Both the position numbers and the translations under genes were made by a program. Below, one piece after another: positions 21,824 to 62,474 of a stretch of DNA of 64,000 bases (position 1 is its first letter; every line of letters begins with the position of its first letter). The notes under the pieces are model-generated. The model ran no database searches. It was not told where the DNA came from and was given only the letters and a program-made list of their open reading frames with translations. Source of the DNA: Mytilus galloprovincialis (taxonomy: Eukaryota; Mollusca; Bivalvia; Mytilida; Mytilidae); contig NC_134849.1 of the NCBI RefSeq assembly GCF_965363235.1, positions 65,615,122-65,679,121 on the forward strand. The letters run 5' to 3'.

Positions 21824-21842
21824 CCATATATATATATTCAAC

Positions 21843-24800: not shown

Positions 24801-25678
24801 ATGTTTAGGAAATCCAGGCCCCTGCGGTGCAGGAGCTATAATTTACATTAATGATAAAGAAGAAAAATTAAAAAGACCTGTCTCTAACAAAGGATCAATC
24901 TTGCTAGCTGAACTTATAGCAATAAAAATGGTTCTGGATTACATAGAATCTTTTTCAAAAGAGCAAATTAATACTTTAACTTTATTTTCGGACAGTCAGA
25001 CAGCATTAGGTATCTTAACTCTCAATTGGAAAAGTGACAGCTATCATCAAACCATTAACGAAATCAAAGGGAAAATAAAAAATTTAAACGAACATGGATT
25101 TTTAATAAACTTAAACTGGACACCAGGACATGCCAACATAAAAGGAAATGACGAGGCAGACTCCTTGGCAAAAGAAGCTGCCAAAGAAGCAGAAACACTA
25201 GCCGTTGATGATATAGTGTTTACAAAACAAGATGTAAAAAAAGCAGCCAGAAATTCTGTTACAAAAAAATGGCAACGCAGATGGGAAAATAGTGATACTG
25301 GACGTCACTATTTCAGATTTCATCCTGAAGTTAAAGATAAAGTTAAAAAAGACTTCCCGTCAAAAAAAAATGTACAACATAATCAACAGTTTACGAACAG
25401 GTTATTCTAAATTAAATGCATACCAATTTATAATAAACCAGCACATCGACACGGAAACCTGTCATCACTGCAAACAAAAAGAAAATGTACAACACTACCT
25501 TTTTGAATGTGACCTGTATTCAGATGCCAGAGACAAATTATTTCATCAAATATACTTCATAACAGGACAAATTCCAACAGATCTAGACAATTTATTAACA
25601 ATCAATTTGCCAAATGCAGAAAATATCAATCAACTATTAGCGGAGTACATAGAGGAAACAAACCGTTTTAGTGGATAA
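21843..25678 (+). pseudogene. LINE ORF2: endonuclease, reverse transcriptase, RNase H
   Basis: It starts at ATG 21843. The APE endonuclease N-terminus (DILCINESF) is in the first frame; a one-base shift at the A8 run (about 21956-21963) moves the rest to the next frame. Further endonuclease motifs are GDLNAK (about 22240) and SDHIAV (about 22468). RT motifs follow: DFEKAYDSVW (23631), GLPQGSVISP (23798) and the FADD catalytic box (23889). RNase H has FTDGSCLGNPG (24788), an AEL block (24908), SDSQTA (24990) and a GHANIKGNDEAD box (about 25127). A second shift at the A9 run (25362-25370) precedes a C-terminal CHHC-X7-H-X4-C finger ending at 25678. Nicking, priming and reverse transcription on the target would be its roles. 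Active-site residues are intact, but the frame is broken twice. Confidence 0.85.
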
Positions 25679-36139: not shown

Positions 36140-36144
36140 TATAT

Positions 36145-38277
36145 AGAAATTAAACCAATCTATCGAGAACAAAATACGGACTTGAAACATTAGACGCAAC
36201 TATATAGAAATTAGACCAATCTTGGAATCAAAATACAGACTTAAAACATTAGACACAACTATATAGAAATTAGACCAATCTTGGGATCAAAATACGGACT
36301 TAAAACATTAAACACAACTACAAAGAAGTACGACCAATCTTGGGATTAAATACAGACTTAAAACATTAAACACAACTACAAAGAAGTTAGACCAATCTTG
36401 AGATCAAAATACGGACTAAAAACATTAGACACAACTATATAGAAATTAGACCAATCTTGGGATCAAAATACTGACTTAAAACATAAAACACAACTATATA
36501 GAAATTAGACCAATCTTGGAATCAAAATACGGACTTAAAACATTAAACACAACTACAAAGAAGTTAGACCAATACTGAGATCAAAATACAGACTAAAAAT
36601 TATAAGACACAACTATATAGAAATTAGACCAATCTTGGAATCAAAATACGGACTTAAAACATTAAACACAACTACAAAGAAGTTAGACCAATACTGAGAT
36701 CAAAATACAGACTAAAAATTATAAGACACAGCTATATAGAAATTACACCAATCTTGGGATCAAAATACGGACTTAAAACATTAAACACAACTACTAAGAA
36801 GTTAGACCAATACTGAGATCAAAATACGGACTAAAAATTATAAGACACAACTATATAGAAATTAGACCAATCTTGGAATCAAAATACGGACTTAAAACAT
36901 TAAACACAACTACAAAGAAGTTAGACCAATACTGAGATCAAAATACGGACTAAAAATTATAAGTCACAACTATATAGAAATTAGACCAATCTTGGGATCA
37001 AAATACGGACTTAAAACATTAGACACAATTATATAGAAATTAGACCAATCTTGGGTTCAAAATACGGACTTAAAACATAAGACACAACTATATAGAAATT
37101 AGACCAATCTTGGGATCAAAATACGGACTTAAAACGTTAGACACAACTACACAGAAATTAAACCAATCTAGAGATCAAATACAGACTTAAAACATTAGAC
37201 AAAACTATATAGAAATTAAACCAATCTATCGAGATCAAAATACGGACTTAAAACATTAGACACAACTATATAGAAATTAGACCAATCTTGGGATCAAAAT
37301 ACGGACTTAAAACATTAGACACAACTTTATAGAAATTAGACCAATCTCGGGATCAAAATACGGACTTAAAACATTAGACACAACTATATAGAAATTCAAC
37401 CAATCTAGAAATCAAAATAGGGTCCTAAAAATTAAACACTGCTACATAGAAATTTGACAAAACTATAGAGATCAAAATATGAGATTAAATCATCAGACAC
37501 AACTACACAGAAATTAGACCAATCTTGGGATCAAAATACGGACTTAAAACATTAAACACAGACTAATTTTAAAATCAAAATATGGACTTGAAACATTTAA
37601 CACAACTACACAGAAATTAGACCAATCATTAGATCAAAATACGGACTTAAAACATTAGACACAACTACAAAGAAAATAAACCAATCTAGAAATCAGGTAC
37701 GTACTAAAACATTATACACTACTACACAGAAATTAGACCAATCATGAGATCAAAATACGGACTTAAAACAACTACAATAAAATTAGTTTAATCTAAATAG
37801 ATCAAAATATGAAATTAAATCATCAGACACAACTACACAGAAATTAGACCAATTTTGGGATCAAAATATGGACTTGAAACATTGGACACAACTACAAAGA
37901 AAATAAACAAATCTAGAAATCAGGTACGTACTAAAACATTAGACACTTCTACACAAAAATTAGACTAATCTATAGAGATCAAAATACGGACTTAAAACAT
38001 AAGACACAACCACACAGAAAATAAACCAATCGAGATATCAGATACGGACTAAAACATTAGACACTTCTACACAGAAATCAGACCAATCTATAGAAATCAA
38101 AATAAGGACTTAAACGCTAGACACAACTACACATAAAATAAACCAATCTAGAAATCAGATACGGACTAAAACATTAGACACTTCTACACAGAAATTAGAC
38201 TAATCTATAGAGATCAAAATACGGACTTAAAACATAAGACACAACTACACAGAAAATAAACCAATCGAGATATCAGA
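36145..38277. repeat. 58-bp satellite, block 3, with a dimeric higher-order form
   Basis: The satellite resumes after the transposon. To about 37400 the units are close to consensus, with an alternating pair ('agaagttagaccaatactga' / 'agaaattagaccaatcttgg') repeated several times. From about 37400 units diverge into a dimer of about 115 bp with 'acacttctacacagaaat' and 'aaaataaaccaatc.aga.atcagatacgg'. The LTR element interrupts it at 38277. Confidence 0.9.
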
Positions 38278-39121
38278 TGTCACGATCCAGATGAATTTTA
38301 TAGAATAATTCACATATTTATTCAGTCAAACTTGTATATAGATAATGATTGTGAAATTGTCGTAATGATCAGAGAATTGCACTTGCAGTCTTTGCGCAGG
38401 ACGCCTTTTTTTCACAGTTTATTTTATACATAGTTTTAACATACGCTTTTATGTATATATGTACGTTTGGCCTAAGTTTGGTTCACCTGTGTTTAAACGC
38501 ACACTGATTAGGCTTAGCCTATTTACACACCTGTTGATTATTTTGAAATAGTGGTCAATCGAGTTCTTCGGACAGGTTTGGCTATTTTTAAACAGTGGTC
38601 AGATGCGTTCTTTGGACACGTTGTCATTTTATTTCTGCTTGGGATTTTCGTGTGGAAGGATGCCACACTCGTTAGAGCATTTTCATATTTGATAGCTAAA
38701 TTTAACCTACAATGGTTCTACTGTATTAGTGCATCAATTCCGAGGTTCCAGCCTGCACCAGAGTGATACAATGCTGCGGTGTTAAGGAGTGGTCATATGG
38801 ATTGAACGCATTCATACATAATTCACCAAACAACACATCTACATATTATAGTGGAACTGTCGTGCACGATACCATAACCGTCATAACGATACCATAACCG
38901 TCATAACGATACAAAGGGAAGTAATCTGGATATACAAACTACTGAAGCTGTTGAACTATTTATTTGAACTTTAATATTTAGAATAATTTGATGTATATTT
39001 TCTTCTTAGTTGGTTTTTTTTTTGTTTGTTTATTAAATAATTTATTTATTCTAATCGTTGATTCTTTAGTCAATATTGTAAAATAGCACTGAAAGACTTA
39101 TCCATCCGTCCGTCCGTGACA
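38278..39121 (+). repeat. 5' LTR (844 bp)
   Basis: Begins TGTCACGATCC and ends CCGTCCGTGACA. Contains two copies of the 20-bp repeat ACGATACCATAACCGTCATA near 38858-38905. A 71-codon frame from a GTG at 38551 is identical in both LTRs but lacks an ATG, so I do not call it a gene. Confidence 0.95.
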
Positions 39122-39123
39122 AT

Positions 39124-39141
39124 TGGTGTCAGAAGTGGGAT
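39124..39141 (+). promoter_or_regulatory. Primer-binding site, tRNA-Leu
   Basis: TGGTGTCAGAAGTGGGAT begins two bases after the 5' LTR. It is complementary to the CCA-ended 3' terminus of eukaryotic tRNA-Leu of the CAA type as I remember it, over all 18 bases. It would prime minus-strand synthesis. Confidence 0.8.
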
Positions 39142-39583
39142 AAGTCTGAAGTGTTTTTTTTCTTATACATTTTGAAGTTAAATTTATATTTTCTATAGAA
39201 TAATTATTATTTGTTTTATACATTGAATATACATTTATAACGAGTAGTAAAGCTTACTATTGTATTTTTCAGAAACTGTAATGTCGACAGAATATCCTGA
39301 TAGTTTGGAACCTCAGAATTTGTAAAATTTCTACACTACATTGCCTCGGTGTTGTTGCACGCTGCAAGTACAAACAGTAGATTTAATGTAGGTATTGTTA
39401 TTTAGAGTAAATTTAGACTAAGGCTATTGTTTATTTTGTGTTGCGATTGACACTTGTGGACCAGGCTATGGTCAATTGTGATACTAAAGCGTAGTGTTAC
39501 GAGATATAGATATGTGATATATTTAGCATTATCCTTGGTCTAGTTTATTGTTACATAGCAAGTCATATTAGCAGGAATCAATC

Positions 39584-40498
39584 ATGGAGAGTCTAAAAGA
39601 GTTACGACAGTATGGTGAGTCATTGGGGTTCGCCAATGAAGATTTAATTAGGTTCATTGAGTCACAACAGGCGAAACAACGCGATGATAGACGTTTTGAA
39701 AGAGAAAGAGAGCAGGAAGAATGGGAAGTTGAAAAGGTAAGATTAGAACATGAATTGGAATTGAAAAGGCTAGATAATACTCGTTTATTTGAAACTGAAA
39801 AACACAGGGAAGAAAAAGGTAATGTTAACCCCTCAAAGGTACCTAAACTACCTCCTTTTGAGGAAGGTACTGATGATATGGATGCATATTTGCGTCGTTA
39901 TGAAAGGTATGCTATATCGCAAAAATGGGACAAATCAATATGGGCTACTCATTTGAGTGCACTTCTTAAAGGTAATGCATTAAATGTGTACGCTTTGATG
40001 CCATCAGATCAAGCATTAGATTATGATGCTTTTAAGACATGTTTGTTGAAGAGGTATAACATGACTGAAGATGGTTTTAAGCAGAAGTTTAGATCTTGTC
40101 GTCCAGAGTTTGGTGAAACGTTTCAACAGTTTTCTGTTCGTTTGGGTAGTTATTTTAGTAGGTGGATTGATATGTCTAATGTTTTGAAGACGTTTGATGG
40201 ACTTTATGATCTTATGTTAAGAGATCAGTTTTTACACATATGTAATAACGAGGTAATGTTATTGCTGAAAGAGAGAGTACCGAAGTCCATAGATGATATG
40301 ACTCGGTATGCTGATCAATTTAAGGAGGCAAGGCGAGTAAATATAGTATCACTTACAAATCAGACTCAAAAAGGTAAGCCACAGCCGTCTCAAAAACCCA
40401 ACAATGCACGGAACCAAGAACCGCCAAAGCAAAGTGACAGAGATAGAAATAGACATACAGGAGGTTATGGTGGTGGAAACAGATTTGATAGAAAGTGA
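39584..40498 (+). CDS. Gag-like polyprotein segment ending at TGA within the zinc knuckle
   Basis: Starts at ATG 39584. Residues 30-75 are highly charged and helical, a likely coiled coil. Residues 85-265 resemble the capsid-type Gag of animal Ty3/Gypsy elements (LPPFEEGTDDMDAYLRR, LLKGNALNVY, LLKRYNMTEDGFKQKF). The tail is RNA-binding-like, with GGYGGGNRFDRK. The frame stops at TGA 40496-40498. Read straight on, the next codons give FKCNKSDHLISNC, which is a C-X2-C-X4-H-X4-C zinc knuckle whose first cysteine position is this TGA. Pol is in the same frame. So either a single-base nonsense change of a Cys codon or a recoded stop separates Gag from Pol. Gag would form the particle and bind the element RNA. 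Confidence 0.88.
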   Translation: MESLKELRQYGESLGFANEDLIRFIESQQAKQRDDRRFEREREQEEWEVEKVRLEHELELKRLDNTRLFETEKHREEKGNVNPSKVPKLPPFEEGTDDMDAYLRRYERYAISQKWDKSIWATHLSALLKGNALNVYALMPSDQALDYDAFKTCLLKRYNMTEDGFKQKFRSCRPEFGETFQQFSVRLGSYFSRWIDMSNVLKTFDGLYDLMLRDQFLHICNNEVMLLLKERVPKSIDDMTRYADQFKEARRVNIVSLTNQTQKGKPQPSQKPNNARNQEPPKQSDRDRNRHTGGYGGGNRFDRK

Positions 40499-43400
40499 TT
40501 TAAGTGCAACAAATCAGATCACTTGATATCGAACTGTCCATTATTAAAAAACAAAGTTGGTAATATACAGAATAGTGGTTCACGAGTAAAGGAAACTCCT
40601 ATTTGCGGTAATGTTATTACTCTAACTGATAGCATTATTACTACACAGGTTAGTAGTCTTACAATACCTGAACAGTGTGAAAAGAAACCAATCAAAATGC
40701 CTGTAGCTAAAGGTAAGTTAGGTAACCGTGTTGTGACAGTACTTCGCGATACAGGATGTAATGGAGTCGTTATAAAGAAAAGTCTTGTAAGTATAGATTG
40801 TTTTCTAGATGATTATCAGACATGCGTATTAGCTGATGGATCGAGTGTTAAAGTACCTATAGCTATAATTACTATAGACAGTCCTTATTATCAAGGTGAA
40901 GTAAAAGCATGGTGTATGGAACAACCATTGTATGATGTTATTATAGGAAACATAGATGGTGCTAGGGAGCCTTATGATCCCGATATATCTCCGTCGGTAA
41001 GTGTAGTAACTCGACAGCAAGCGAAGAATAGAGATAATCCATATCCGAAATTAAAAGTTCCAGGAAGTATTAAGGATGTTAGTCTAGAGGACATTGAGAA
41101 TGAACAGCAGTCTGATGCAAGTTTGTCGAAGCTTAGACAGTATGTTGCTGAAGGCAGAAACTTTGAGAAGACCAATGGTACAAAAGTAAATTACATAGTG
41201 AAGAAGAAACTTGTGTATAGAGAATTTATGTCACCAAAAGTAGAAAATGGTAAGTTATTCCGTCAGTTGGTCGTTCCTGAAGTTTATAGAAGCGATGTCA
41301 TGAAATTAGCACACGAGTCATTAATGGCTGGACATATGGCTACACGACGTACAGTATATCGTGTATTATCAGAGTTTTACTGGCCAGGAGTTGAATCCGA
41401 TGTCAAGCGGTATTGCCAGTCCTGTGATATTTGCCAACGCACTGTACCAAAAGGTAAGCAAGTTAGAGCCCCTTTGGGTAAAACCCCTATCATAGATGTA
41501 CCTTTTCGCAGAGTAGCTGTAGATATAGTTGGACCTTTAGTACCAGTAACTGATAAAGGAAATCGTTATATACTAACTCTTGTTGATTACGCTACAAGGT
41601 ATCCAGAAGGAGTAGCGTTACCATCTATCGAGACAGAAAGGGTAGCGGAAGCATTGATTGATATATTTTGTAGGGTAGGTTTTCCAAGAGAGATGTTGAC
41701 AGATATGGGCGCACAATTTACTTCCAATTTAATGTCTGAGGTGAGTAGACTGATTTCTCTTCGGCAGTTTACTACTACACCGTATCATCCTATGTGTAAC
41801 GGACTCGTTGAAAGGTTTAACGGTACGATGAAGCTGATGTTGAAGCGACTATGTGCAGAACGTCCGCGAGATTGGGATAAGTATTTAGGACCAGCATTAT
41901 TTGCCTACAGAGAAGTACCTCAGGAGAGTGTTTTATTTTCCCCATTTGAATTGGTATATGGTTGGCCAGTTAGAGGTCCAATGACAATTCTTAAAGAATT
42001 GTGGACTAGAGAAATTACTGATCCTGAAGTGAGGTCCACATACGAGTATGTTATCAATTTACGAGAAAGATTGGAATCGACTTGTGAATTGGTTAAACAA
42101 AATTTGGAGAAAGCTTCACGTAAACAGTCACGTATATATAACAGAAAGTCATGTTCAAGAAAGATGAAGGTAGGTCAAAAGGTATTGGTGCTACTACCTA
42201 CTAAAGCAAATAAGTTGCTGATGCATTGGAAAGGACCATTCTCTATAGTAGAAAAGATAAGTGATCTTGATTACAGAATTGATATGAGAGGTAAACTTAA
42301 AATGTTTCATGTCAACATGTTGAAACTGTATGTTGAACGTGAGCAAACTAACGTGTGCGTTAGTGCACCAGATCACAAGGTAAGTTTTGTTGCTACAGTA
42401 TCAGTTATAGATCTCGAAAATGAAGATACAGACGATGTGGACAATTACGAAAGTGAGTTAATCGAAACGCCTGTTGCAGTTGCTAAGGAGACATTACGAG
42501 ATGTTCATATCAACGAAGCTTTAAAAGCAAATGAAACAGTTAAGGTACAGTGTTTACTAGATAAGTTCTCACACGTGTTGACAGATATTCCAGGTAGGAC
42601 AAATGTACTACAGCACGATATCAAGTTGACTTCTGATGATCCTGTTCGATTTAAACCTTATCCCATACCATATGCTATGCTACACACGGTAAATAAGGAA
42701 GTCGATAAGATGATAGAAATGGATATCATCGAGCGATCAGATAGTCCTTATTCAAGTCCATTTGTGATTGTGAAGAAGAAAGATCAGAGTAATCGGTTTT
42801 GTATAGATTTCAGAGGTTTAAATAGTATTACAATTTTCGATGCAGAAACGATGGGTAATATAGAAGAGATGTTTTCAAAGTTGTCTGGTTATCAGTTTAT
42901 ATCTAAAATTGATTTAACCAAGGGATATTGGCAAATTAGTCTTGTGGATGCTGCAAAACCCAAAACAGCATTCCAAACACCTAGAGGATTGTTCCAATTC
43001 AAGGTTCTGCCATTTGGCCTGGTCTATAGTGGTGCTACTTTTGTACGTTGTATGAGAAAAGTTTTAGAAGGGTTGGAAAACGTTGATAACTTTGTTGACG
43101 ATATTATAGTGTACACACGTTCTTTCAATCACCATATGGAGGTTTTGGAGAGTGTATTTGAGAGGTTGGCATCTGCTAATTTGTCAGCAAGACCCTCAAA
43201 GTGTTATATAGCGTATAGCAGTCTTGAAGTTTTAGGTCACATTGTTGGAACAGATCGTCTTTCACCAAATCCAGATAAAATTGAGGTAATCAAAAATGCT
43301 CATAGGCCTACAACCAAGAAACAAGTCAGAAGCTTCATTGGCATGGCTGAATTTTACAGAAAGTTTGTTCCCAATTTCTCAGATATAGCTAGTCCGCTTA

Positions 43401-43891
43401 CTGAACTGACGAAAAAGGTACAACCAAATCAGGTACGTTGGGAAGATATTCATGAAAAAGCATTTTCAAGTTTGAAGAATGCATTAGTAAAAGCTCCTGT
43501 TTTAAAGTTGCCGAACTTTTCTTAGGTATTTATCTTTCAAACTGATGCTTCTGATAACGGAGTAGGCGCTATACTGCCACAGGATGAAGGTAATACTAGA
43601 TTGCCTGTATCGTACGCTAGTAAAAAACTGAAAGCTAGTGAACGAAATTACTCCACTATCGAGAAAGAATGCCTAGCCATTGTATGGGCAATCAACAAAT
43701 TTCAAAGGTATTTATATGGTAAACAGTTTATATTGGAGACAGACCATCAACCTTTGATATATTTGCAAAAGTCTAAAATTGCAAATGCTCGATTGATGAG
43801 ATGGTCACTCTTGTTACAGCCGTATAGGTTCAAGATTGTTGCCATCAAAGGAAAGGACAACGTTGGAGCAGATTTTTTGAGTCGTATATAG
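40499..43891 (+). pseudogene. Pol: protease, integrase, RT, RNase H, with one internal TAG
   Basis: Same frame as Gag. Counting residues from 40523: protease DTG at 76-78; integrase zinc domain H264, H271, C301, C304; integrase catalytic D334, D394, E430, giving the D,D-35-E spacing; a GPF motif (WKGPF) at 569-573; RT with KIDLTKGYW at about 795, LPFGL at 829 and the FVDD active site at 857-860. TAG at 43523-43525 interrupts the start of RNase H; the frame then continues with FQTDASDNGVG and ends with GADFLSRI at TAG 43889-43891. No frameshift is present. Integrase upstream of RT within one frame is the unusual point. All catalytic residues seen are intact, so decay is limited to the two stops. 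Confidence 0.92.
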
Positions 43892-43929
43892 GATCGTGGA
43901 GATAAATAAAAGTAAGAATACTTTCTTAA

Positions 43930-43942
43930 ATTGGGGAGGTGA
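43930..43942 (+). promoter_or_regulatory. Polypurine tract
   Basis: 'attggggaggtga' lies directly before the 3' LTR, the expected plus-strand primer. Confidence 0.8.
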
Positions 43943-44805
43943 TGTCACGATCCAGATGAATTTTATAGAGTAATTCACATATTTATTCAGTCAAACTTGT
44001 ATATAGATAATGATTGTGAAATTGTCGTAATGACCAGAGAATTGCACTTGCAGTCTTTGCGCAGGACGCCTTTTTTTCACAGTTTATTTTATACATAGTT
44101 TTAACATACGCTTTTATGTATATATGTACGTTTGGCCTAAGTTTGGTTCACCTGTGTTTAAACGCACACTGATTAGGCTTAGCCTATTTACACACCTGTT
44201 GACTATTTTGAAATAGTGGTCAATCGAGTTCTTCGGACAGGTTTGGCTATTTTTAAACAGTGGTCAGATGCGTTCTTTGGACACGTTGTCATTTTATTTC
44301 TGCTTGGGATTTTCGTGTGGAAGGATGCCACACTCGTTAGAGCATTTTCATATTTGATAGCTAAATTTAACCTACAATGGTTCTACTGTATTAGTGCATC
44401 AATTCCGAGGTTCCAGCCTGCACCAGAGTGATACAATGCTGCGGTGTTAAGGAGTGGTCATATGGATTGAACGCATTCATACATAATTCACCAAACAACA
44501 CATCTACATATTATAGTGGAACTGTCGTGCACGATACCATAACCGTCATAACGATACCATAACCGTCATAACGATACCATAACCGTCATAACGATACAAA
44601 GGGAAGTAATCTGGATATACAAACTACTGAAGCTGTTGAACTATTTATTTGAACTTTAATATTTAGAATAATTTGATGTATATTTTCTTCTTAATTGTTT
44701 TTTTTTTGTTTGTTTATTAAATAATTTATTTATTCTAATCGTTGATTCTTTAGTCAATATTGTAAAATAGCACTGAAAGACTTATCCATCCGTCCGTCCG
44801 TGACA
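43943..44805 (+). repeat. 3' LTR (863 bp)
   Basis: Same as the 5' LTR except for about four substitutions, one base in a G/T run, and three instead of two copies of the 20-bp repeat (44531-44597). Confidence 0.95.
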
Positions 44806-45050
44806 TCAGATACGGACTAAAACATTGGACACTTCTACACAGAAATCAGACCAATCTATAGAAATCAAAATAAGGATTTAAACGCTAGACACAACTACAC
44901 ATAAAATAAACCAATCTAGAAATCAGATACGGACTAAAACATTAGACACTTCTACACAGAAATTAGACCAATCTATAGAGATCAAAATAAGGACTTAAAC
45001 GCTAGACACTAGACATAAACTAAACCAATCTAAAAATTAAAAAGAAACCG
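44806..45050. repeat. 58-bp satellite, block 4 (right end)
   Basis: The dimeric form of block 3 resumes in register after the TCAGA duplication and decays by about 45050. Confidence 0.9.
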
Positions 45051-46249: not shown

Positions 46250-48150
46250 CTGCTGATAATAGTTTTATAGTTTTGCTCTATCTGATGGTTTTAATAGTTT
46301 TACAGTATTGCTCTATCTGATAGTTTTAATAGTTTTACAGTTTTGCTTTATCTGATAGTTTTAATAGTTTTATAGTTTTGCTCTATCTGATAGTTTTAAT
46401 AGTTTTACAGTTTTGCTCTATCTGATAGTTTTAATAGTTTTACAGTTTTGCTCTATCTGATGGTTTTAATAGTTTTACAGTATTGCATTATCTGATAGTT
46501 TTAATAGTTTTATAGTTTTGCTCTATCTGATGGTTTTAATAGTTTTACAGTATTGCTCTATCTGATAGTTTTAATAGTTTTACAGTTTTTCTTTATCTGA
46601 TAGTTTTAATAGTTTTATAGTTTTGCTCTATCTGATAGTTTTAATAGTTTTACAGTGTTGCTTTATCTGATAGTTTTAATAGTTTTACAGTATTGCTTTA
46701 TCTGATAGTTTTAATAGTTTTACAGTATTGCTTTATCTGATAGTTTTAATAGTTATATAGTATTGCTCTATCTGATAGTTTTAATAGTTTTACAGTTATG
46801 CTCTATCTGACAGTTTTAATAGTTTTACAGTATTGCTCTATCTGATAGTTTTAATAGTTTTACAGTTTTGCTTTATCTGATAGTTTTAATAGTTTTACAG
46901 TATTGCTTTATCTGATGGTTTTAATAGTTTTACAGTTTTGCTTTATCTGATAGATTTAATAGTTTTACAGTTTTGCTCTATCTGATGGTTTTAATAGTTT
47001 TACAGTTTTACTTTATCTGATAGTTTGAATAGTTTTACAGTTTTGCTTTATCTGATAGTTTTATAGTTTTGCTCTATCTGATAGTTTTAATAGTTTTACA
47101 GTTTTGCTCTATCTGATAGTTTTAATAGTTTTACAGTTTTGCTCTATCTGATGGTTTTAATAGTTTTACAGTATTGCTCTATCTGATAGTTTTAATAGTT
47201 TTATAGTTTTGCTCTATCTGATGGTTTTAATAGTTTTACAGTATTGCTCTATCTGAAAGTTATAATAGTTTTACAGTTTTGCTTTATCTGATAGTTTTAA
47301 TAGTTTTATAGTTTTGCTCTATCTGATAGTTTTAATAGTTTTACAGTTTTGCTTTATCTGATAGTTTTAAGTTTTACAGTATTGCTTTATCTGATAGTTT
47401 TAATAGTTTTACAGTATTGCTTTATCTGATAGTTTTAATAGTTATATAGTATTGCTCTATCTGATAGTTTTAATAGTTTTACAGTTTTGCTCTATCTGAC
47501 AGTTTTAATAGTTTTACAGTATTGCTCTATCTGATAGTTTTAATAGTTTTACAGTTTTGCTTTATCTGATAGTTTTAATAGTTTTACAGTATTGCTTTAT
47601 CTGATGGTTTTAATAGTTTTACTGTTTTGCTTTATCTGATAGTTTTAATAGTTTTACAGTTTTGCTCTATCTGATGGTTTTAATAGTTTTACAGTTTTAC
47701 TTTATCTGATAGTTTTAAGTTTTACAGTTTTGCTTTATCTGATAGTTTTAATAGTTTTACAGTTTTGCTTTATCTGATAGTTTTAATAAATTTGCAGTTT
47801 TGCTTTATCTGATGGTTTTAATAGTTTTACGGTATTGCTTTATCTGATGGTTTAATAGTTTTACAGTTTTGCTTTATCTGATAGTTTTAATAATTTTACA
47901 GTTTTGCTTTATCTGATGGTTTTAATAGTTTTACGGTATTGCTTTATCTGATGGTTTAATAGTTTTACAGTTTTGCTTTATCTGATAGTTTTAATAATTT
48001 TACAGTTTTGCTTTATCTGATGGTTTTAATAGTTTGACAGTTTTGCTTTATCTGATAGTTTTAATAGTTTAACAGTTTTGCTTTATCTGATAGTTTTAAT
48101 AGTTTTACAGTTTTGCTTTATCTGATAGTTTTAATAGTTTTAGTTTTTCT
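46250..48150. repeat. 35-bp satellite array, about 54 copies
   Basis: Unit 'tctgatagttttaatagttt' plus 'tacagttttgcttta'. Variants: gat(a/g)gtt, ttt(a/g)cag, gct(c/t)ta. Runs of variants recur in the same order (for example about 46500-46960 and 47200-47650), suggesting a higher-order duplication of roughly 700 bp. A few units are shortened (near 47055, 47365, 47710). Confidence 0.93.
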
Positions 48151-48359
48151 TTACAAAAAAATGGGTGAAAATTGTCATGTAGGGGCAATATGGAGTCGAC
48201 AGCCGATTGATTTTTTGGTAGATCTTGTTTCTTATACTAATCAGACCACTCAGACTGTGAACGTGGCCTTCTATAAAGTGGAGGTTAAGGGGGAGCAGAC
48301 TCTTTTATAGAACTACATATATGGCTAACGCATAGACGTTTTGCATGTCCCACCAAACG
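48151..48359 (+). other. Short unique spacer between two satellites
   Basis: About 200 bp, including 'cttatactaatcagaccact', with a 65-codon frame (48113-48310) that begins inside the 35-bp satellite and shows no domain. Probably non-coding. Confidence 0.35.
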
Positions 48360-51300
48360 TTGGCCCCTTTCAAAATCGTGCATCAGCATCTGAATGTATT
48401 CCTGATCACCTAGTGCCATGAACTCCTTTAAACAAATGATGGAACTAGCTGCTCCACAAGTGACGAACTATTTTTAACCTGTGGAGGAAATAACTGATCC
48501 ACAAGTGACATGAACTCGATATCAATCCAGTATGAGAACTAGCTGCTCTACAAGAAACTAGCTGCTTTGCTTGAAACACGAACTCTCTTAAACACGTAGA
48601 AGGACATGCTGCTTCAATTGGGACTTGAACTCTGTTAAACCTGTGTAGGAACTAGCTGTTCCAAAAGTGACATGCACTCCTTAAAATCAGAGGAGTAACT
48701 AGCTATTCCACTAATGACATATGCTCCTAAAGGAGGAACTAGCTGTTCTAAAAGTGACCTGAAATCCCTAAAATCTGAGAAGGAACTAATGACATGAACT
48801 CCCTAAATCAGAGGAGGAACTAGCTATTCCACTAATGACATGAACTCCCTAAAATCAGAGGAGTAACTAGCTATTCTACTAATGACATGAACTACCTAAA
48901 ATCAGAGGAGGAACTAGCTATTCCACTAAATGACATGAACTCCCTAAAATCAGAGGAGAAACTAGCAATTCCACTAAATGACATGAACTCCCTAAAATCA
49001 GAGGAGGAACTAGCAATTCCACTAAATGACATGAACTCCCTAAAATCAGAGGAGGAACTAGCTATTCCACTTATGACATGAACTCCCTAAAATCAAAGGA
49101 GGAACTAGCTATTCCACTAATGACATGAACTCCCTAAAATCAGAGGAGGAACTAGCTATTCCACGAATGACACGAACTACCTAAAATCAGAGGAGGAACA
49201 AGCTATTCCACTAATGACATGAACTTTCTAAAATCAGAGGAGGAACTAGCTATTCCACTAAATGACATGAACTCCCTAAAATCAGAGGAGGAACTAGCTA
49301 TTCTTCCAAATGACATGAACTCCCTAAAATCAGAGGAGGAACTAGCTATTCCACTAATGACACGAACTACCTAAAATCAGAGGTGGAACTAGCCACTAAT
49401 GACATGAACTCCCTAAAATCAGAGGTGGAACTAGCTATTCCACTTATGACATGAACTCCCTAAAATCAAAGGAGGAACTAGCTATTCCACTAATGACATG
49501 AACTCCCTAAAATCAGAGGAGGAACTAGCTATTCCACTAAATGACACGAACTCCCTAAAATCAGAGGACGAACTAGCTATTCCACTAAATGACACGAACT
49601 CCCTAAAATCAGAGGAGGAACTAGCAATTCCACTAAATGACCTGAACTCTTCTAAAATCAGAGGAGGAACTAGCAATTCCACTAAATGACATGAACTCCC
49701 TAAAATCAGAGGAGGAACTAGCTATTCCACTAATGACACGAACTACCTAAAATCAGAGGAGGAAGTAGCTATTCCACTAAATGACATGAACTCCCTAAAA
49801 TCAGAGGAGGAACTAGCAATTCCACTTAATGACATGAACTCCCTAAAATCAGAGGAGGAACTAGCTATTCCACTATTGCACGAACTACTTAAAATCAGAG
49901 GAGGAACTAGCTATTCTACTAAATGACATGAACTCCCTAAAATCAGAGGTGGAACTAGCTATTCCACTAATGACACGAAATACCTAAAATCAGAGGAGGA
50001 ACTAGCTATTCCACTAATGACATGAACTCCCTAAAATCAGTGGAGGAACTAGCTATTCCACTAATGACATGAACTCCCTAAAATCAGAGGTGGAACTAGC
50101 TATTCCACTAAATAACATGAACTCCCTAAAATCAGAGAAGGAACTAGCTATTCCATTAATGACATGAACTCCCTAAAATCAGAGGAGGAACTAGCTATTC
50201 CACTTATGACATGAACTCCCTAAAATCAGAGGAGGAACTAGCTATTCCACGAATGACACGAACTACCTAAAATCAGAGGAGGAACAAGCTATTCCACTAA
50301 TGACATGAACTTTCTAAAATCAGAGGAGGAACTAGCTATTCCACTAAATGACATGAACTCCCTAAAATCAGAGGAGGAACTAGCTATTCTTCCAAATGAC
50401 ATGAACTCCCTAAAATCAGAGGAGGAACTAGCTATTCCACTAATGACACGAACTACCTAAAATCAGAGGTGGAACTAGCCACTAATGACATGAACTCCCT
50501 AAAATCAGAAGTGGAACTAGCTATTCCACTTATGACATGAACTCCCTAAAATCAAAGGAGGAACTAGCTATTCCACTAATGACATGAACTCCCTAAAATC
50601 AGAGGAGGAACTAGCTATTCCACTAAATGACACGAACTCCCTAAAATCAGAGGAGGAACTAGCTATTCCACTAAATGACACGAACTCCCTAAAATCAGAG
50701 GAGGAACTAGCAATTCCACTAAATGACCTGAACTCTTCTAAAATCAGAGGAGGAACTAGCAATTCCACTAAATGACATGAACTCCCTAAAATCAGAGGAG
50801 GAACTAGCTATTCCACTAATGACACGAACTACCTAAAATCAGAGGAGGAAGTAGCTATTCCACTAAATGACATGAACTCCCTAAAATCAGAGGAGGAACT
50901 AGCAATTCCACTTAATGACATGAACTCCCTAAAATCAGAGGAGGAACTAGCTATTCCACTATTGCACGAACTACTTAAAATCAGAGGAGGAACTAGCTAT
51001 TCTACTAAATGACATGAACTCCCAAAAATCAGAGGTGGAACTAGCTATTCCACTAATGACACGAACTACCTAAAATCAGAGGAGGAACTAGCTATTCCAC
51101 TAATGACATGAACTCCCTAAAATCAGTGGAGGAACTAGCTATTCCACTAATGACATGAACTCCCTAAAATCAGAGGTGGAACTAGCTATTCCACTAAATA
51201 ACATGAACTCCCTAAAATCAGAGAAGGAACTAGCTATTCCATTAATGACATGAACTCCCTAAAATCAGAGGAGGAACTAGCTATTCCACTAATGACACGA

Positions 51301-52945
51301 ACTACCTAAAATCAGAGGAGGAACTAGCTATTCCACTAATGACACGAACTTTCTAAAATCAGAGGTGGAACTAGCTATTCTACTAAATGACATAAACTCC
51401 CTAAAATCAGAGGAGGAACTAGCTATTCCACTTAATGACATGAACTCCCTAAAATCAGAGGAGGAACTAGCTATTCCACTAATGACACGAACTACCTAAA
51501 ATCAGAGGAGGAACTAGCTATTCCACTAAATGACATGAACTCCCTAAAATCAGAGGAGGAACTAGCTATTCCACTAATGACACGAACTCCCTGAAATCAG
51601 AGGAGGATCTAGCTATTCCACTAATGACATGAACTTCCTAAAATCAGAGGAGGAACTAGCTATTCCACTAATGACACGAACTACCTAAAACCAGAGGAGG
51701 AACTAGCCATTCCACTAATGACATGAACTTTCTAAAATTAGAGGTGGAACTAGCCACTAATGACATGAACTCCTTAAAAACAGAGGTGGAACTAGCTATT
51801 CCACTAATGACATGAACTCCCTATAATCAGTGGAGGAACTAGCTATTCCACTAATGACATGAACTCCCTAAAATCAGAGGTGGAACTAGCTATTCCACTA
51901 AATGACATGAACTCCCTAAAATCAGAGGAGGAACTAGCTATTCCACTAATGACACGAACTACCTAAAATCAGAGGAGGAATTAGCTATTCCACTGAATGA
52001 CATGAACTCCCTAAAATCAGAGGAGGAACTAGCAATTCCACTAATGACACGAACTCCTTAAAATTAGAGGAGGAACTAGCTATTCCACTAATGACACGAA
52101 CTACCTAAAATCAGAGGAGGAACTAGCTATTCCACTAATGACATGAACTTTCTAAAATCAGAGGAGGAACTAGCTATTCCACTAATGACACGAACTCCCT
52201 AAAATCAGAGGAGGAACTAGCTATTCCACTAATGACACGAACTACCTAAAATCAGAGGAGGAACTAGCTATTCCACTAATGACACGAACTACCTAAAACC
52301 AGAGGAGGAACTAGCCATTCCACTAATGACATGAACTTTCTAAAATCAGAGGTGGAACTAGCCACTAATGACATGAACTCCTTAAAAACAGAGGTGGAAC
52401 TAGCTATTCCACTAATGACATGAACTCCCTATAATCAGTGGAGGAACTAGCTATTCCACTAATGACATGAACTCCCTAAAATCAGAGGTGGAACTAGCTA
52501 TTCCACTAAATGACATGAACTCCCTAAAATCAGAGGAGGAACTATCTATTCCACTAATGACACGAACTACCTAAAATCAGAGGAGGAATTAGCTATTCCA
52601 CTAAATGACATGAACTCCCTAAAATCAGAGGAGGAACTAGCAATTCCACTAATGACACGAACTCCTTAAAATTAGAGGAGGAACTAGCTATTCCACTAAT
52701 GACACGAACTACCTAAAATCAGAGGAGGAACTAGCTATTCCACTAATGACATGAACTTTCTAAAATCAGAGGAGGAACTAGCTATTCCACTAATGACACG
52801 AACTCCCTAAAATCAGAGGAGGAACTAGCTATTCCACTAATGACACGAACTACCTAAAATCAGAGGAGGAACTAGCTATTCCACTAATGACATGAACTCC
52901 CTAAAATCAGAGGAGGAACTAGCTATTCCACTAATGACATGAACT
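48360..52945. repeat. 47/48-bp satellite array with nested higher-order repeats
   Basis: About 90 units with consensus 'atgacatgaactccctaaaa' then 'tcagaggaggaactagctat' then 'tccacta(a)'. Two sub-types alternate (catgaactcc, cacgaactac) and single-A indels change unit length between 47 and 48. At 48360-48800 copies are strongly diverged, while the rest is homogeneous. A 1086-bp block is duplicated (for example 49498-49689 equals 50584-50775) and a 608-bp block further right (51681 versus 52289). Short frames on both strands come from runs of 48-bp units and are not genes. Confidence 0.93.
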
Positions 52946-53830
52946 GCCCGAAAAGAGGCTTGCTGCAATAAATAAATCTATTGTCAGTATTGAACATGAT
53001 TTAGTTGAAGTCATTACTTATAACATACATGTTATTGTTAAGAAAATCCGTGTAAAGGAGGACCACAGATTTGGTCTAATTGTCTAAGTCACAATCTATA
53101 TCTTTTCTTTGACAGTGACATCAACGTATGTGAATTTTCACCAAATGTTTGCTTGCCAAGAAAAAACATGACAGGTGTCACTAGTTGACCAGAACATTCT
53201 TACCTTTCCAGAGCTCATGTGATCACCCGTTTTTGATAAAGTTGATGTTTCTCATGTCTTAGCTTTTCTGTGTGGAGTTGTGTGTACTGATGTTTGTTTT
53301 TTCCTTTTCTTTTTCTTTCATTGCCATTGCACCGTCTGCTTTTCTTTAAGACAACTTTTAAATGCCCTTCCGTATCTTTGATCTGCAACTTTTTCAGTTT
53401 AAGAATATTTTTGATGCTTTTGGAGTGTCCTTTATATATATATATATAAAAAACTGTTTGTACAGGCTCCTGACTTGGGACAGGCGTAAACATACAGCAA
53501 ATGGTGGGGTTTAACATGTTAGCGGTTGAAAGTATCTTCAAGCAAATGTGGGTTTGTTAATAAAATACAGGTGCATTAATGATATATTATTAAAAGAAAA
53601 AAAAAAGAAAAAAATGTTGACAATTTTAATACATTTATAATACAGTAACTATACATGATAAATCATAATGAGAATCACACAATAAAAACACAGCTTGTTT
53701 ATATTTTAAAATTATGGTGAACATATATATACAAATTTCATTATTAATACTATGTGTACTTATAGATGGTGTCCTATATAAAGGGAGACAACTTTTTATA
53801 TATGCACGTTTGCAATAAATAAAAATTAAA
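52946..53830. other. Intergenic with a dispersed-repeat copy
   Basis: A minus-strand copy of the CCTGTCCCAAGTCAGGA-type repeat core lies at 53465-53486, and sequence typical of its flank extends through 53230-53440. The two minus-strand frames (108 and 105 codons) over this area run through repeat sequence. Nothing else is supported. Confidence 0.4.
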
Positions 53831-56311: not shown

Positions 56312-56685
56312 TCAAGCTATTGAACATTTGTTTGGTTTCTTGGAAATGGCACCATTATCTCTCACTTCTTCTGATTCTCTAAGAGTGTTAGGATCCACAT
56401 TCGTTAAAACTTCCTGTAAACAAAGTGATCCTCTCCCAACATTTACTAAAGCCTGTACCAGGACCCGTATTGTAGGTTTCACTGTTCTGTCTTTTCTCCA
56501 TGTGAACAGTACTTCACTATTCTGAGCTGCTAAGTCGTGGGTATGATTGCTCTGTATATTTTCTAGTGTTGGAATAGACAATCCGATTTCAGCACCAAGT
56601 TGAAAAAATATCTGACCAATTTGTGGTGCTAATGCATCCAAAATCTCATCGGTTGGGATACAATCCATGTATTCCGAAGGAATGT
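56312..56685 (-). CDS. Last exon of a Death-domain protein with a CaaX-like end
   Basis: The exon starts after a good acceptor (minus strand TTATATACTGACATTTCAG, ending at 56686) and runs 374 nt to TGA at 56312-56314. The first 90 residues fit a Death domain: LAPQIGQIFFQLGAEIGL (helices 1-2), a helix-3 segment with N-HTHDLAAQNSEVLFTW, then a proline-containing loop and VLVQALVNVGRG (helices 5-6). Death domains join adaptor, receptor and kinase complexes in apoptosis and innate immunity. The tail ends in SKKPNKCSIA, a basic stretch before Cys-Ser-Ile-Ala, a possible prenylation box. The upstream part of the gene is not resolved, so the family (adaptor, receptor or other) cannot be named. Confidence 0.75.
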
Positions 56686-58630
56686 CTGAAATGTCAGTAT
56701 ATAAAAGTAATTCAAAATAAATGTGACACAGTTTTGTAATTTGGTTGAGTAAAAATAAAGTTAGAGACCTTAACCGACAGAATTCTAATATTTCAATTAT
56801 AAAAGGGGCATAACTCAAGATAGTTAAAGAGACGCTACCCACTTTAAAGTCGATCTGTTTTAGTGGTTATAATTCTCTACAATTTTCTAAAAAAATCGGC
56901 AATATAAAGGAGCATATCTCCTGAACAGTAAAAAGTGTCGCAACCCAATTTTGAATTTGATCAGTGTTTTGTGGTAATAAGTGGTGTGTTCAAGTTACAA
57001 AACATTTGGTGAAGACAAACTAAAGTAAGAAAACGGAAAAAAAATTCAGAAATTTTTATGATTGTTTGGAGGCATGAGTTTCAAGCGTGGAAAAATGACA
57101 CCATTCAATACAACTTCTAACTTTATCTGGGATGCGTGGTACTACGCATTGTGTATAAATTTTATAACATTTGGTTGATGCAAACAAACTCAAGCTACAA
57201 AACGGAAACAAAAAATATCCTTTTATATATTTATAAAACGACATCACTCATGAACTGTAGAAGTGACGCCACCCAAATTCGAACTTGATTTGTGATAATA
57301 AGCATAGCATATAACTTGTAGTGTAGAGAAATTATAGTTAGAGGGAGTTTTGAAATGTACATAATGGGCGGACCAATAGGACAGAAGTACGTATTGGACA
57401 TGGGTGACACTTGTGAGTTTGACTGTCCCTCTATTTAATGAACTCTATGCCTAGAGGCGGGATACAATAAGCAAATATTAAAAATTGATGTTCGAAGTAG
57501 CAGGAATCAGTCATATTTGAACTGAATATTAAGATCAAATTATATTTGATTTAGGGACGACATCAAAAGATCGATGTAGGATAAAAAACTTAAATCAAAT
57601 AGTTTGGGGGTGGGGGGTGTTAAAATTCTGCAAGTTTTGTATTTCTAAAATCGATTTTTACATATATCCCTATTGGTATCAATTTTTCCCAAATTAAGGA
57701 GGCTCGAGGGTATAAAAATTTCAGAAAAAAATCAAACATTTGTTTTTCATTACAAATTTTATTTATTTCCTTTTGTAGTTGTTACTTTATCATATGGTAC
57801 AAAAATCATTCAAAACAATCAATTCGTGTTGGCCCCAGATGACTTTCAAAATGTATATATCATTGAAAAATTTCCAAATTATCTCCCTTTGGTGGAAAAA
57901 TGCCATTTTTTGGCTCTAAAATTGAAATATCTTTTTCAACTCATCGGTGACCTATCTTTTTTAATATAATTTCCATATAAGCTGTACTTAAACTAAATTA
58001 TTGTCAAATTTTAGCGATTTCTGTAATAAATTTCTTTTTTTTATTTCGATATTACCTTTATTTTTCCTCTTACTTCAACAGAAAAAAAAACACCTTTACA
58101 AAAATGTATGCTTCTTTCGAAGGCAGATTGTGAGCGCAAATGAACGGTGACCCCACTTTTTTATTTTATTTTTTTATTAACTATAAGATAAAGTTCATTT
58201 ATAGAAAAATATAGAGAAATCCTATATAAATGATTTAGACCCGCGAACCCCCTTAAGTTAAGAAGGGAGGTGTGGGGGTCAGTGAAAAAACTATGTGAAT
58301 GAAGTTTTTTTTATCCTACATTGAAATTTTGATGTTGTCCCTTATCAGTTTAAAAATGTCAATATTTATTGTTAAAGGCAAAAGCAAAAATTGTAAAAAA
58401 AAATAGGCAATTAATCACATAAGGATATAATAAATAAATGTAAACATTTTCTATCTTTGCCTTGTTTTGTTTACATATCTATGTGTATACCATAATTTCC
58501 AAATACATTTTAATGGTAAAACAAATTAATATGAATAACATGAATTAAGGAAATTCCTATGAATAACATGAATTAAGGAAATTCCTATGAACAGCTGAAT
58601 TAACATTGCTTTTACATTTCCGTTACATAC
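56686..58630 (-). other. Putative intron of the Death-domain gene
   Basis: Bounded by the acceptor at 56686-56687 and a donor (minus strand GTATGTAAC) at 58630. It contains AT-rich and poly-A/T sequence and a piece of a mussel repeat ('gagtttgactgtccct', 57414-57429). The plus-strand 98-codon frame at 57673-57969 has no domain and is not called. Confidence 0.4.
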
Positions 58631-61456: not shown

Positions 61457-62474
61457 TTAAGACAAGGAAATTGATGAAACTAACTGATTTTGAGCATGTT
61501 GAATTACTTTAGGGCTGGTATGAATATACCTAGTATAACAATCTGATGACCACCTGCCTAAAGTTTTAATTAAGTGGTCTTCTAATCTTACTTCCTGTGC
61601 TGTTGTTGCTGCTCCAATTCTGAAAGAATGTCCATTATAATTTTTGCTTTCAAGACCTAAATTGTCTAAAATAATTTTGACATGTTTAATAAAAAATTGT
61701 CTACTTAAAGGATTGCCATCATCAGAGACAAACAGGGCATCAGATCTAATACTTGACATTTTCTTTCGAAGAGACAAATAATTTTTAATAGCAAAGCAAG
61801 GACAAATAATGTGTCCACTTTTGTATAAGGGTATAGTGACACCTTGTCTGAAAGGATCTGTTTTTGATTTTTTCAAATGTAATAAAATGTGATCTTCAAA
61901 AATTGCTAAATCACCAACACACAAATGTGTTTCCGAATCAAAGTTGCTAAGTATAGTGAACTCTCCACAACGCAAAAAAGCAAAAAAAGCTACAACACAA
62001 GCTGCTTCTAACATAACATTGTTAAAAAGACTAAAAAAATTGTTTCTCAATAGCATAACCATTTTATACAACAAAGACATAGTAATTGGCAATCTAGGCC
62101 TTTTTAACACAACCTTTCTGCTTCTTTTTTAAACCATTTAAAATAGATTGTAAACATAATAAAGGCTTGCCATATTGTTCTAAAGGACTAAATCCTGCAT
62201 ATTGCAAGTAATAATATCTTATACCACATAAATACAATTTAATAGTACTATATTTTAAGCTTTTATGTTCATCGCAAAAGGCAACAAATCTCATTAACAA
62301 CGTTTCTGAAACCGGGGGCATTTCATTCGAAGTCCAGAATGATCCCTGTAGTAAGGAGAACTTCTTATATAAGTCAAAACCTGTAGTGTAATGCGATCTT
62401 GTACTGTCCGCTACAGAATACTTCCATAATGTCTCTACTGAGCTGTCCAGAGAATGTCTGAAAGCTGTGGGCAA
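61457..62474 (-). pseudogene. Tyrosine recombinase (YR) of the Ngaro element, one frameshift
   Basis: Two overlapping minus-strand frames (62474-62094 and 62110-61457) form one protein of about 335 residues; the switch is at an A5 run near 62098-62106. The N-terminal half is the core-binding region (HYTTGFDLYKKF, STIKLYLCGIRYYY). The catalytic half has the first Arg in FLRCGEF, the H-X2-R box HSFRIGAA, and LGRWSSDCYTRYIHTS with the nucleophilic Tyr. The enzyme would integrate the circular DNA copy. The first frame has no ATG near its start and overlaps the RNase H end by 40 bp, so translational coupling or shifting may produce it. Confidence 0.85.

What the first reader, a model, noticed from the sequence alone, without database searches (positions are those of the whole stretch)
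40499..43891. Ty3/Gypsy RT with integrase upstream (copia-like order) in a likely mollusc
One 1000-codon frame reads protease (DTG), integrase (HHCC, D,D-35-E, GPF), then RT (FVDD) and RNase H. Ty3/Gypsy elements normally have integrase last. The inverted order is known from Gmr1 and relatives, first described as a deuterostome group (Goodwin and Poulter, from memory). A protostome copy this young would extend or test that distribution. The order is seen directly; the host assignment is inferred.
Basis: partly seen in the sequence, partly recalled or inferred. Interest (0 to 1): 0.8.

Follow-up and report, generated by a model that had tools for sequence, protein, structure and literature searches.

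The report
Mussel retrotransposon with spliced-out LTR intron
This is a young copy of a known type of jumping gene (Gmr1-like, with its integrase in an unusual position) in a mussel, and comparison with its sister copies shows that the repeats at its ends lack an intron-like piece in just the way expected if the element was copied back into the genome from spliced RNA.

Summary
The order is real: protease, integrase, reverse transcriptase, then RNase H, inside an LTR element at 38278-44805. RNase H lies behind an in-frame stop, so it is not in the 1000-codon frame. Integrase and RT are both Ty3/Gypsy and find the same relatives; all 234 listed proteins with both domains have integrase first. 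Gag has a SCAN match. The host is a Mytilus mussel, inferred from its closest relatives. As a "protostome Gmr1" it is not new: such elements are published from crustaceans (2013) and an annelid (2021).

The unexpected part is in the LTRs. Sister copies have long (~1,350 bp) or short (~850 bp) LTRs. The difference is one 493-501 bp segment that begins GTAAGT, ends YAG and is missing exactly at those edges in the short form, which the window copy has. A second family (51% identical integrase) shows the same with an unrelated 154-bp GTAAGT...GCAG segment. Short LTRs do not form one clade. Best reading: a spliceosomal intron in the transcribed part of the LTR, lost repeatedly when spliced RNA is reverse-transcribed. 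Splicing itself was not observed; no RNA data were available.

The parts
38273..38277 (.). target-site duplication TCAGA, left
   Evidence: direct reading
38278..39121 (+). 5' LTR, short (intron-less) form, 844 bp
   Evidence: TG...CA ends; 4 transitions and 2 gap openings against the 3' LTR
38737..38756 (+). exact exon-exon type junction ATTCCGAG|GTTCCAGCCTGC in the 5' LTR (junction between 38744 and 38745), where sister copies with long LTRs carry a 493-501 bp GTAAGT...YAG segment
39124..39140 (+). probable primer binding site TGGTGTCAGAAGTGGGA (complement of a tRNA 3' end; tRNA-Leu(CAA) is recalled, not tested)
   Evidence: direct reading
39584..40498 (+). gag ORF (304 aa), ended by TGA 40496-40498 that the sister copies do not share
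40076..40333 (+). SCAN-domain match in gag (capsid C-terminal region)
   Evidence: Pfam PF02023, 29.9 bits against cut-off 27
40523..43525 (+). pol ORF, 1000 aa: protease, integrase, reverse transcriptase; ended by TAG 43523-43525 that the sister copies do not share
40748..40756 (+). protease motif DTG
   Evidence: direct reading
41273..42334 (+). integrase: H2C2 zinc domain, rve core (D,D-35-E read directly), C-terminal SH3-like domain with GPF
   Evidence: best solved relative Ty3 integrase
42653..43522 (+). reverse transcriptase (FVDD)
   Evidence: RVT_1 at 42770-43246; best solved relative Ty3 RT
43526..43891 (+). RNase H, behind the in-frame stop
   Evidence: PF17917 1.4e-29 in ORF 43601-43891
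43933..43942 (+). polypurine tract GGGGAGGTGA
   Evidence: direct reading
43943..44805 (+). 3' LTR, short form, 863 bp
44402..44421 (+). same spliced-type junction in the 3' LTR (between 44409 and 44410)
44806..44810 (.). target-site duplication TCAGA, right
   Evidence: direct reading
36140..38278 (.). 59/118-bp tandem repeat array into which the element is inserted; it resumes at 44810-45032

Best explanation
A recent insertion of a Gmr1-type Ty3/Gypsy LTR retrotransposon in a Mytilus genome. Family members without stops encode one Gag-Pol frame (gag with a SCAN-like capsid part, protease, integrase, RT, RNase H); the window copy has two private stops. The LTR of this family has a spliceosomal intron in its transcribed part, in the sense direction (best placed in R, between a TATA-like box and an ATTAAA signal; that placement is inferred). 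When unspliced RNA is the template the daughter keeps the intron. When the 5' copy of the intron is spliced out before reverse transcription, the daughter loses it from both LTRs, because R and U5 of the RNA 5' end template both new LTRs (textbook mechanism). The window copy descends from such an event. Shown: exact presence/absence at GT/AG borders, recurrence in separate lineages, agreement of the two LTRs, and an independent case in a second family. Inferred: splicing, the position within R, and the template.
For: Element anatomy. Integrase before RT in 20 of 20 fetched loci and in 234 of the 234 listed relatives that hold both domains (111, 38 and 85 in the three searches; 57 of the 291 listed lack one of the two). 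SCAN in gag of a copy of each of three families in this genome, 31.0, 45.2 and 52.8 bits. LTR intron: long form ATTCCGAG|GTAAGT...YAG|RTTCCAGCC, short form ATTCCGAG|GTTCCAGCC with nothing between. In the whole genome, by exact pattern, 18 donor sites and 20 acceptor sites of the long form, 16 of them paired at 493-501 bp, and 15 short junctions; reversed-pattern controls 0. Recurrence: the tree of LTR flanks needs at least 4 changes of state and rejects all short LTRs as one clade (p-AU 7e-5; the group was named after earlier trees had been seen). L039 (short) differs from long L031 at 4 of 852 flank bases and from the nearest other short copy at 15, and matches L031 at 24 of 25 left and 22 of 23 right informative flank columns. 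Both LTRs of a copy agree in 11 of 12 copies with two LTRs read. Second family: L046 CAG|GTAAGT...TTTTGCAG|GGG, 154 bp, identical in both LTRs, absent from L044 and L045; flanks differ from L044 at 0 of 289 and 5 of 675 bases; genome count 5 donors, 4 short junctions. Chance of such borders on a given segment about 5e-5 per family, from letter frequencies in the loci held.
Against: No RNA data: splicing was never seen. The borders share an AGGT-type microhomology, which deletion could use. L036 has a short 5' LTR and a long 3' LTR (it is rearranged and lacks most of RT and RNase H). The oldest copy (L043, LTR K2P 0.039) is short, so the intron could have been gained after it split off. For L032/L033 the nearest other copy is a short one (L039, 15 differences, against 17 to long L031), so they need not be a separate loss. 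The third and largest family showed no LTR length difference in the 4 of 133 copies read. Whether the segment also occurs outside these LTRs could not be searched.
Confidence: 0.8

Rival explanations
1. The element is an ordinary Gmr1-like copy and the long LTR arose when an intron-generating transposon (introner) or other DNA segment inserted into the LTR; the short form is ancestral.
For: The deepest copy L043 is short in both LTRs. Insertion with a 4-bp AGGT duplication would look similar.
Against: A single gain does not explain short LTRs nested among long ones: at least 4 changes of state, L039 at 4 differences from a long LTR, L036 5' LTR matching long L041 at 25 of 25 informative left-flank and 22 of 23 right-flank columns. 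Later precise losses are still needed. The two families' segments show no clear similarity (best match 18 bases, E 0.03).
Confidence: 0.1
2. The short LTR arose once, by splicing or by a microhomology deletion, and spread to other lineages by recombination (template switching between co-packaged RNAs, or gene conversion).
For: LTR and internal trees are not fully congruent: L032/L033 have mixed flanks and their nearest other copy is the short L039. Retroelement recombination is well known.
Against: L039, the window copy and the L036 5' LTR carry different markers on both sides of the junction, each fitting its own nearest long LTR, so conversion tracts would have to be very short each time. 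The second family has its own case.
Confidence: 0.15
3. Plain deletion through the AGGT repeat at the segment borders, with no splicing.
For: AGGT occurs at both borders.
Against: Recurs exactly at GTAAGT/YAG; both LTRs change together; an unrelated segment in family 2 has the same kind of borders.
Confidence: 0.03
4. The reading order is a chimeric assembly or a fusion of a copia integrase with a gypsy RT.
For: Copia-like domain order.
Against: Integrase and RT both match Ty3 best among solved structures; the same order between matching LTRs on several chromosomes; same relatives for both domains.
Confidence: 0.01
5. The TGA between gag and pol is a programmed readthrough signal, as in some retroviruses.
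For: It sits between gag and pol in one frame.
Against: 0 of 12 sister copies that hold the site have a stop there; 5 of 13 have one open frame of 1439 codons.
Confidence: 0.01

Closest known systems
Gmr1 clade of Ty3/Gypsy (Goodwin and Poulter 2002; paper not held, recalled)
   Same: integrase upstream of RT; SCAN-like gag (PMC3424704 passage: SCAN derives from Gag of a Gmr1-like element)
   Different: mollusc host; introns in the LTR are not mentioned in the passages on Gmr1 that I read
Gmr1-like elements of crustaceans (GyRex4, Gychoro2, GyMaja1, GyLiva4; PMC3587641) and annelid LGF3 (PMC8220671)
   Same: protostome members of the same clade, already published
   Different: the passages I read place them by RT/RNase H (annelid also by integrase) trees; LTR introns not mentioned there
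Spliced endogenous retroviruses: MMTV proviruses lacking the rem intron, and HERV-H (PMC11998498, passages)
   Same: genomic copies that match a spliced RNA, with recurrent generation proposed
   Different: introns inside the element body (env for MMTV), not described as lying in the LTR; that paper calls such insertions rare
Ty element with an introduced intron, and Ogre, EVADE and BARE1 splicing (PMC12786077, passages)
   Same: an intron in a retrotransposon RNA; loss of the Ty intron showed the RNA intermediate
   Different: the Ty intron was introduced by the experimenters; EVADE splicing removes the protease part of the coding region; here the intron is natural and within the LTR

Membership tests
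Gmr1 clade | integrase upstream of RT in pol | tested here: met
Gmr1 clade | RT and integrase of Ty3/Gypsy, not copia, type | tested here: met
   best solved relatives Ty3; in a tree of 29 chosen rows the integrase-first RTs form one clade against Ty3 and a Haematococcus RT, 99/93
Gmr1 clade | groups with the reference element Gmr1 of Gadus morhua in a tree | not testable with these tools
   the reference sequence was not among the records found; no named vertebrate appeared among the 120 rows listed in each
Gmr1 clade | SCAN-like gag | tested here: met
   PF02023 29.9 bits, cut-off 27; sister families 45.2 and 52.8 bits; against this, phmmer of this gag found no SCAN structure in the PDB
LTR retrotransposon | matching LTRs TG...CA, PBS, PPT, target duplication | tested here: met
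   sister copies
Ty1/copia | copia-type RT and integrase | tested here: not met
   only the domain order is copia-like
spliceosomal (U2-type) intron | GT...AG borders with consensus donor and exact presence/absence | tested here: met
spliceosomal (U2-type) intron | removal from RNA | not testable with these tools
   no RNA reads available

The most novel reading that the evidence does not exclude
Gmr1-type elements of mussels keep a functional spliceosomal intron inside R of their LTRs as a sorting device: RNA that loses it serves as mRNA, RNA that keeps it is packaged as genome, and the intron-less LTR copies mark the times when spliced RNA was packaged. The same arrangement, with unrelated introns, exists in at least two families.
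Probability: 0.25. Interest if true: 0.75.

Novelty: new variant of a known kind. Interest (0 to 1): 0.5.

Why it matters
The integrase-first order in a mollusc is a small extension of a known clade, although the one large mollusc survey I could read (PMC6238403, passages and its Table 1) lists no Gmr1 clade among its 21, while my searches list such elements from many mollusc genera. The LTR introns matter more. They are a natural version of the classic experiment in which an intron placed in a Ty element was lost on transposition. Their presence or absence would mark, copy by copy, whether spliced or unspliced RNA was the template, and raises the question of how an intron survives in an element that must pass through RNA at every move.

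Tried and rejected
Readthrough at the gag-pol TGA: rejected, private to this copy. Chimera: rejected. Relatives in IMG/VR viral contigs by the RT: none confirmed. tRNA genes in the window for the PBS: none. A tree with named Gmr1, Mag and CsRn1 references: not possible, no such records were reached; Ty3 pieces and P0082 (Haematococcus, RT only) were the only outgroups, and I chose 23 of the 291 listed proteins for it. The deep branches of the integrase tree are poorly supported. Family 3 (4 of its 133 listed copies fetched): LTRs about 600 bp, no length difference. Length of the leader between LTR and gag in 12 copies: 457-469 bases, no second intron-like difference. Whether the 501-bp segment occurs outside these LTRs: not answered.

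Full report
What is there. The finding lies inside an LTR retrotransposon at 38278-44805. The LTRs (844 and 863 bp) begin TGTCAC and end GTGACA, differ by 4 transitions in 843 aligned bases (K2P 0.0048) and are flanked by the 5-bp duplication TCAGA. The element is inserted in a 59/118-bp tandem repeat array that ends at 38278 and resumes at 44810. Gag, pol and RNase H ORFs share one frame. Pfam gives SCAN in gag, H2C2 + rve + C-terminal domain of integrase, then RT, and RNase H in the following ORF. So the order protease, integrase, RT, RNase H is confirmed, but the 1000-codon frame stops before all but the first residues of RNase H.

State of this copy. Two in-frame stops interrupt it: TGA 40496-40498 and TAG 43523-43525. 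Neither is shared: 12 of 12 sister copies holding the first site and 11 of 11 holding the second read sense there. Of 13 sister copies, 5 have one open frame of 1439 codons and one has 1367. The family therefore makes Gag-Pol as one frame, and the TGA is not a conserved readthrough signal.

Family and host. The genome holding the window has 1.385 Gb in 331 contigs. The integrase piece matched 150 scored places (of 2478 candidates, so counts are lower bounds): 14 at 97% or more (window included), 3 at 51%, and 133 at 44-45%. I fetched about 4 kb on either side of the other 13, the 3, and 4 of the 133; integrase lies upstream of RT in 20 of 20, though some hold only part of RT. In the protein database the RT region (2678 hits, 120 listed) and the integrase region (3489 hits, 120 listed) find the same relatives. 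The best named hits are Mytilus edulis (99% over 74% of the RT region, 99% over all of the integrase region); M. coruscus and M. galloprovincialis are also listed. Other named hosts include Gigantopelta, Mizuhopecten, Pinctada, Crassostrea/Magallana, Saccostrea, Pecten, Argopecten, Ylistrum, Ruditapes, Mercenaria, Ostrea, Patella, the nemertean Lineus and the echinoderms Diadema and Holothuria. Of the 291 different proteins listed in three searches, 234 hold both domains and all 234 have integrase first. That the host is a Mytilus is an inference from these hits; large contigs C1-C14 fit the 14 chromosomes of mussels (recalled).

Clade. Among solved structures both RT and integrase match Ty3 best. 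In an RT tree of 29 rows (23 proteins chosen from 291, four loci, the window, Ty3) the integrase-first elements form one clade against Ty3 and a Haematococcus RT (99/93). It splits into a mollusc-rich lineage that holds the window and also the 51% family (100/97) and a lineage of echinoderm and hemichordate elements that also holds the mussel's largest family (100/99). The integrase tree shows the second group (91/81) but resolves little else. One copy of each of the three mussel families has a SCAN match in gag (31.0, 45.2 and 52.8 bits; cut-off 27); a sequence search of this gag against solved structures found no SCAN protein. A review states that the vertebrate SCAN domain derives from the Gag of a Gmr1-like element (PMC3424704, passage). 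No labelled Gmr1 sequence was reached, so membership by a tree with the reference itself is untested.

What is known. Gmr1-like elements in protostomes were published for crustaceans (PMC3587641, passages) and for the annelid Lamellibrachia (PMC8220671, passages). A mollusc survey of 2018 (PMC6238403, passages including Table 1) mentions Gmr1 once, in its background, and lists no such clade among 21. One of its new MolGy clades may be this lineage; I could not test that. Searches that combined Gmr1 with bivalve, oyster or gypsy wording listed no paper that reports a mollusc Gmr1 element in its title or shown abstract start.

The unexpected part: LTR introns. LTRs of sister copies are either long (1339-1355 bp) or short (about 830-865 bp where whole). 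The difference is a single segment with exact splice-like borders. Long LTRs read ATTCCGAG|GTAAGTGTTTTA...TTATTRCYAG|[G/A]TTCCAGCC, short LTRs ATTCCGAG|GTTCCAGCC with nothing between (for L043 the alignment stopped 9 bases early but the letters are contiguous, with one substitution to the right in its 3' LTR). Long: both LTRs of L031, L034, L037, L038, L041, the one held of L035, and the 3' LTR of L036. Short: both of the window copy, L039 and L043, the one held of L032, L033 and L040, and the 5' LTR of L036. L042 could not be scored. Of the copies with two LTRs and K2P under 0.007, 5 are long and 2 short (window and L039). By exact pattern the genome has 18 donor-type sites, 20 acceptor-type sites (16 donor-acceptor pairs at 493-501 bp) and 15 short junctions; reversed patterns give 0. 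One fetched solo LTR (L051) is long, 1349 bp, with a 5-bp duplication GGGGT.

Recurrence. On a tree of the LTR flanks, with the segment itself left out, long and short are interleaved: at least 4 changes, or 3 without the tandemly duplicated L032/L033; holding all short LTRs together is rejected (p-AU 7e-5; 2e-42 without L032/L033; the group was named after earlier trees were seen, so the p values are rough). L039 differs from long L031 at 4 of 852 bases against 15 from the nearest other short copy. The L036 5' LTR is 9 from long L041 against 17 from the nearest short. The window's nearest LTRs are long (L035 and L041, 11-14 differences) against 17-20 for the nearest short one. L043 is 20 from long L035 against 28-31. 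Against this, L032/L033 are nearest to the short L039 (15, against 17 to long L031). At informative columns L039 matches L031 at 24 of 25 on the left and 22 of 23 on the right, and L036 5' matches L041 at 25 of 25 and 22 of 23. L032, L033 and a third junction at C3:27702199 are spaced 13.28 kb apart and are one tandem duplication, not independent.

Second family. In the family at 51% identity, L044 and L045 have LTRs reading AACACTCAG|GGGTTTTTAGG. L046 has AACACTCAG|GTAAGTTATT...TTATTTTGCAG|GGGTTTTTAGG, a 154-bp segment identical in both its LTRs; the flanks differ from L044 by 0 of 289 and 5 of 675 bases. The genome has 5 such donors and 4 short junctions. The two families' segments show no clear similarity. 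The chance that a given presence/absence segment starts GTAAGT and ends YAG, allowing five offsets, is about 5e-5 at the letter frequencies of the loci held.

How it works. Among the motifs found, a TATA-like box upstream (177 in family 1; TATAA 235 in family 2) and an ATTAAA signal near the LTR end (755 of the short LTR; 890) put the segment between them, so inside R if these are the real signals (inference). Reverse transcription copies R-U5 from the RNA 5' end into both LTRs (textbook), so one splicing event in the leader removes the segment from both LTRs of the daughter. In 11 of 12 copies with two LTRs read (9 of family 1, 3 of family 2) the two agree; the exception, L036, is rearranged and lacks most of RT and RNase H. 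Precedents for copies made from spliced RNA exist (MMTV rem intron and HERV-H, PMC11998498 passages; Ty with an introduced intron, PMC12786077 passages). I found no description of one within an LTR in the two searches with that wording, which is weak evidence of novelty.

Verdict. The reported order is right and is a Gmr1-like element in a mussel: a new member of a known clade, not a surprise by itself. The LTR introns make it a new variant, with splicing inferred from DNA alone.

Noticed in passing
L047-L050 (4 of 133 listed copies): The largest integrase-first family in this mussel has 63-69% RT-RNaseH identity to named deuterostome proteins (Amphiura, Glandiceps, Holothuria, Apostichopus, Lytechinus, Diadema) and groups inside them, which would fit old exchange between phyla or slow evolution.
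   Followed up: partly
window 21312-25678 (+): LINE-type element with endonuclease, RT and RNase H.
   Followed up: no
window 61457-63730 (-): RT-like ORF followed by a tyrosine recombinase ORF (DIRS/Ngaro-like); the RT match is below the Pfam cut-off.
   Followed up: no
window 14704-15336 (+): GDSL/SGNH hydrolase-like ORF, 211 aa.
   Followed up: no
window 56312-56842 (-): Death-domain ORF, 176 aa, probably a host exon.
   Followed up: no
window 1-1960, 46257-48153, 48647-52954: Long tandem arrays of 39, 35 and 47/94-bp units; the first is open as a 620-aa frame.
   Followed up: no
G000 C3:27675644, 27688922, 27702199: Three short-LTR junctions spaced 13.28 kb apart: a tandem duplication that includes copies L032 and L033.
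   Followed up: no
protein hits P0018, P0092, P0195, P0200, P0216, P0276, P0290: Records labelled as bacterial, archaeal or ciliate (Thiodiazotropha, Campylobacter, Heimdallarchaeota, Halteria) carry animal Gmr1-like pol: probably animal DNA in symbiont, metagenome or protist assemblies.
   Followed up: no
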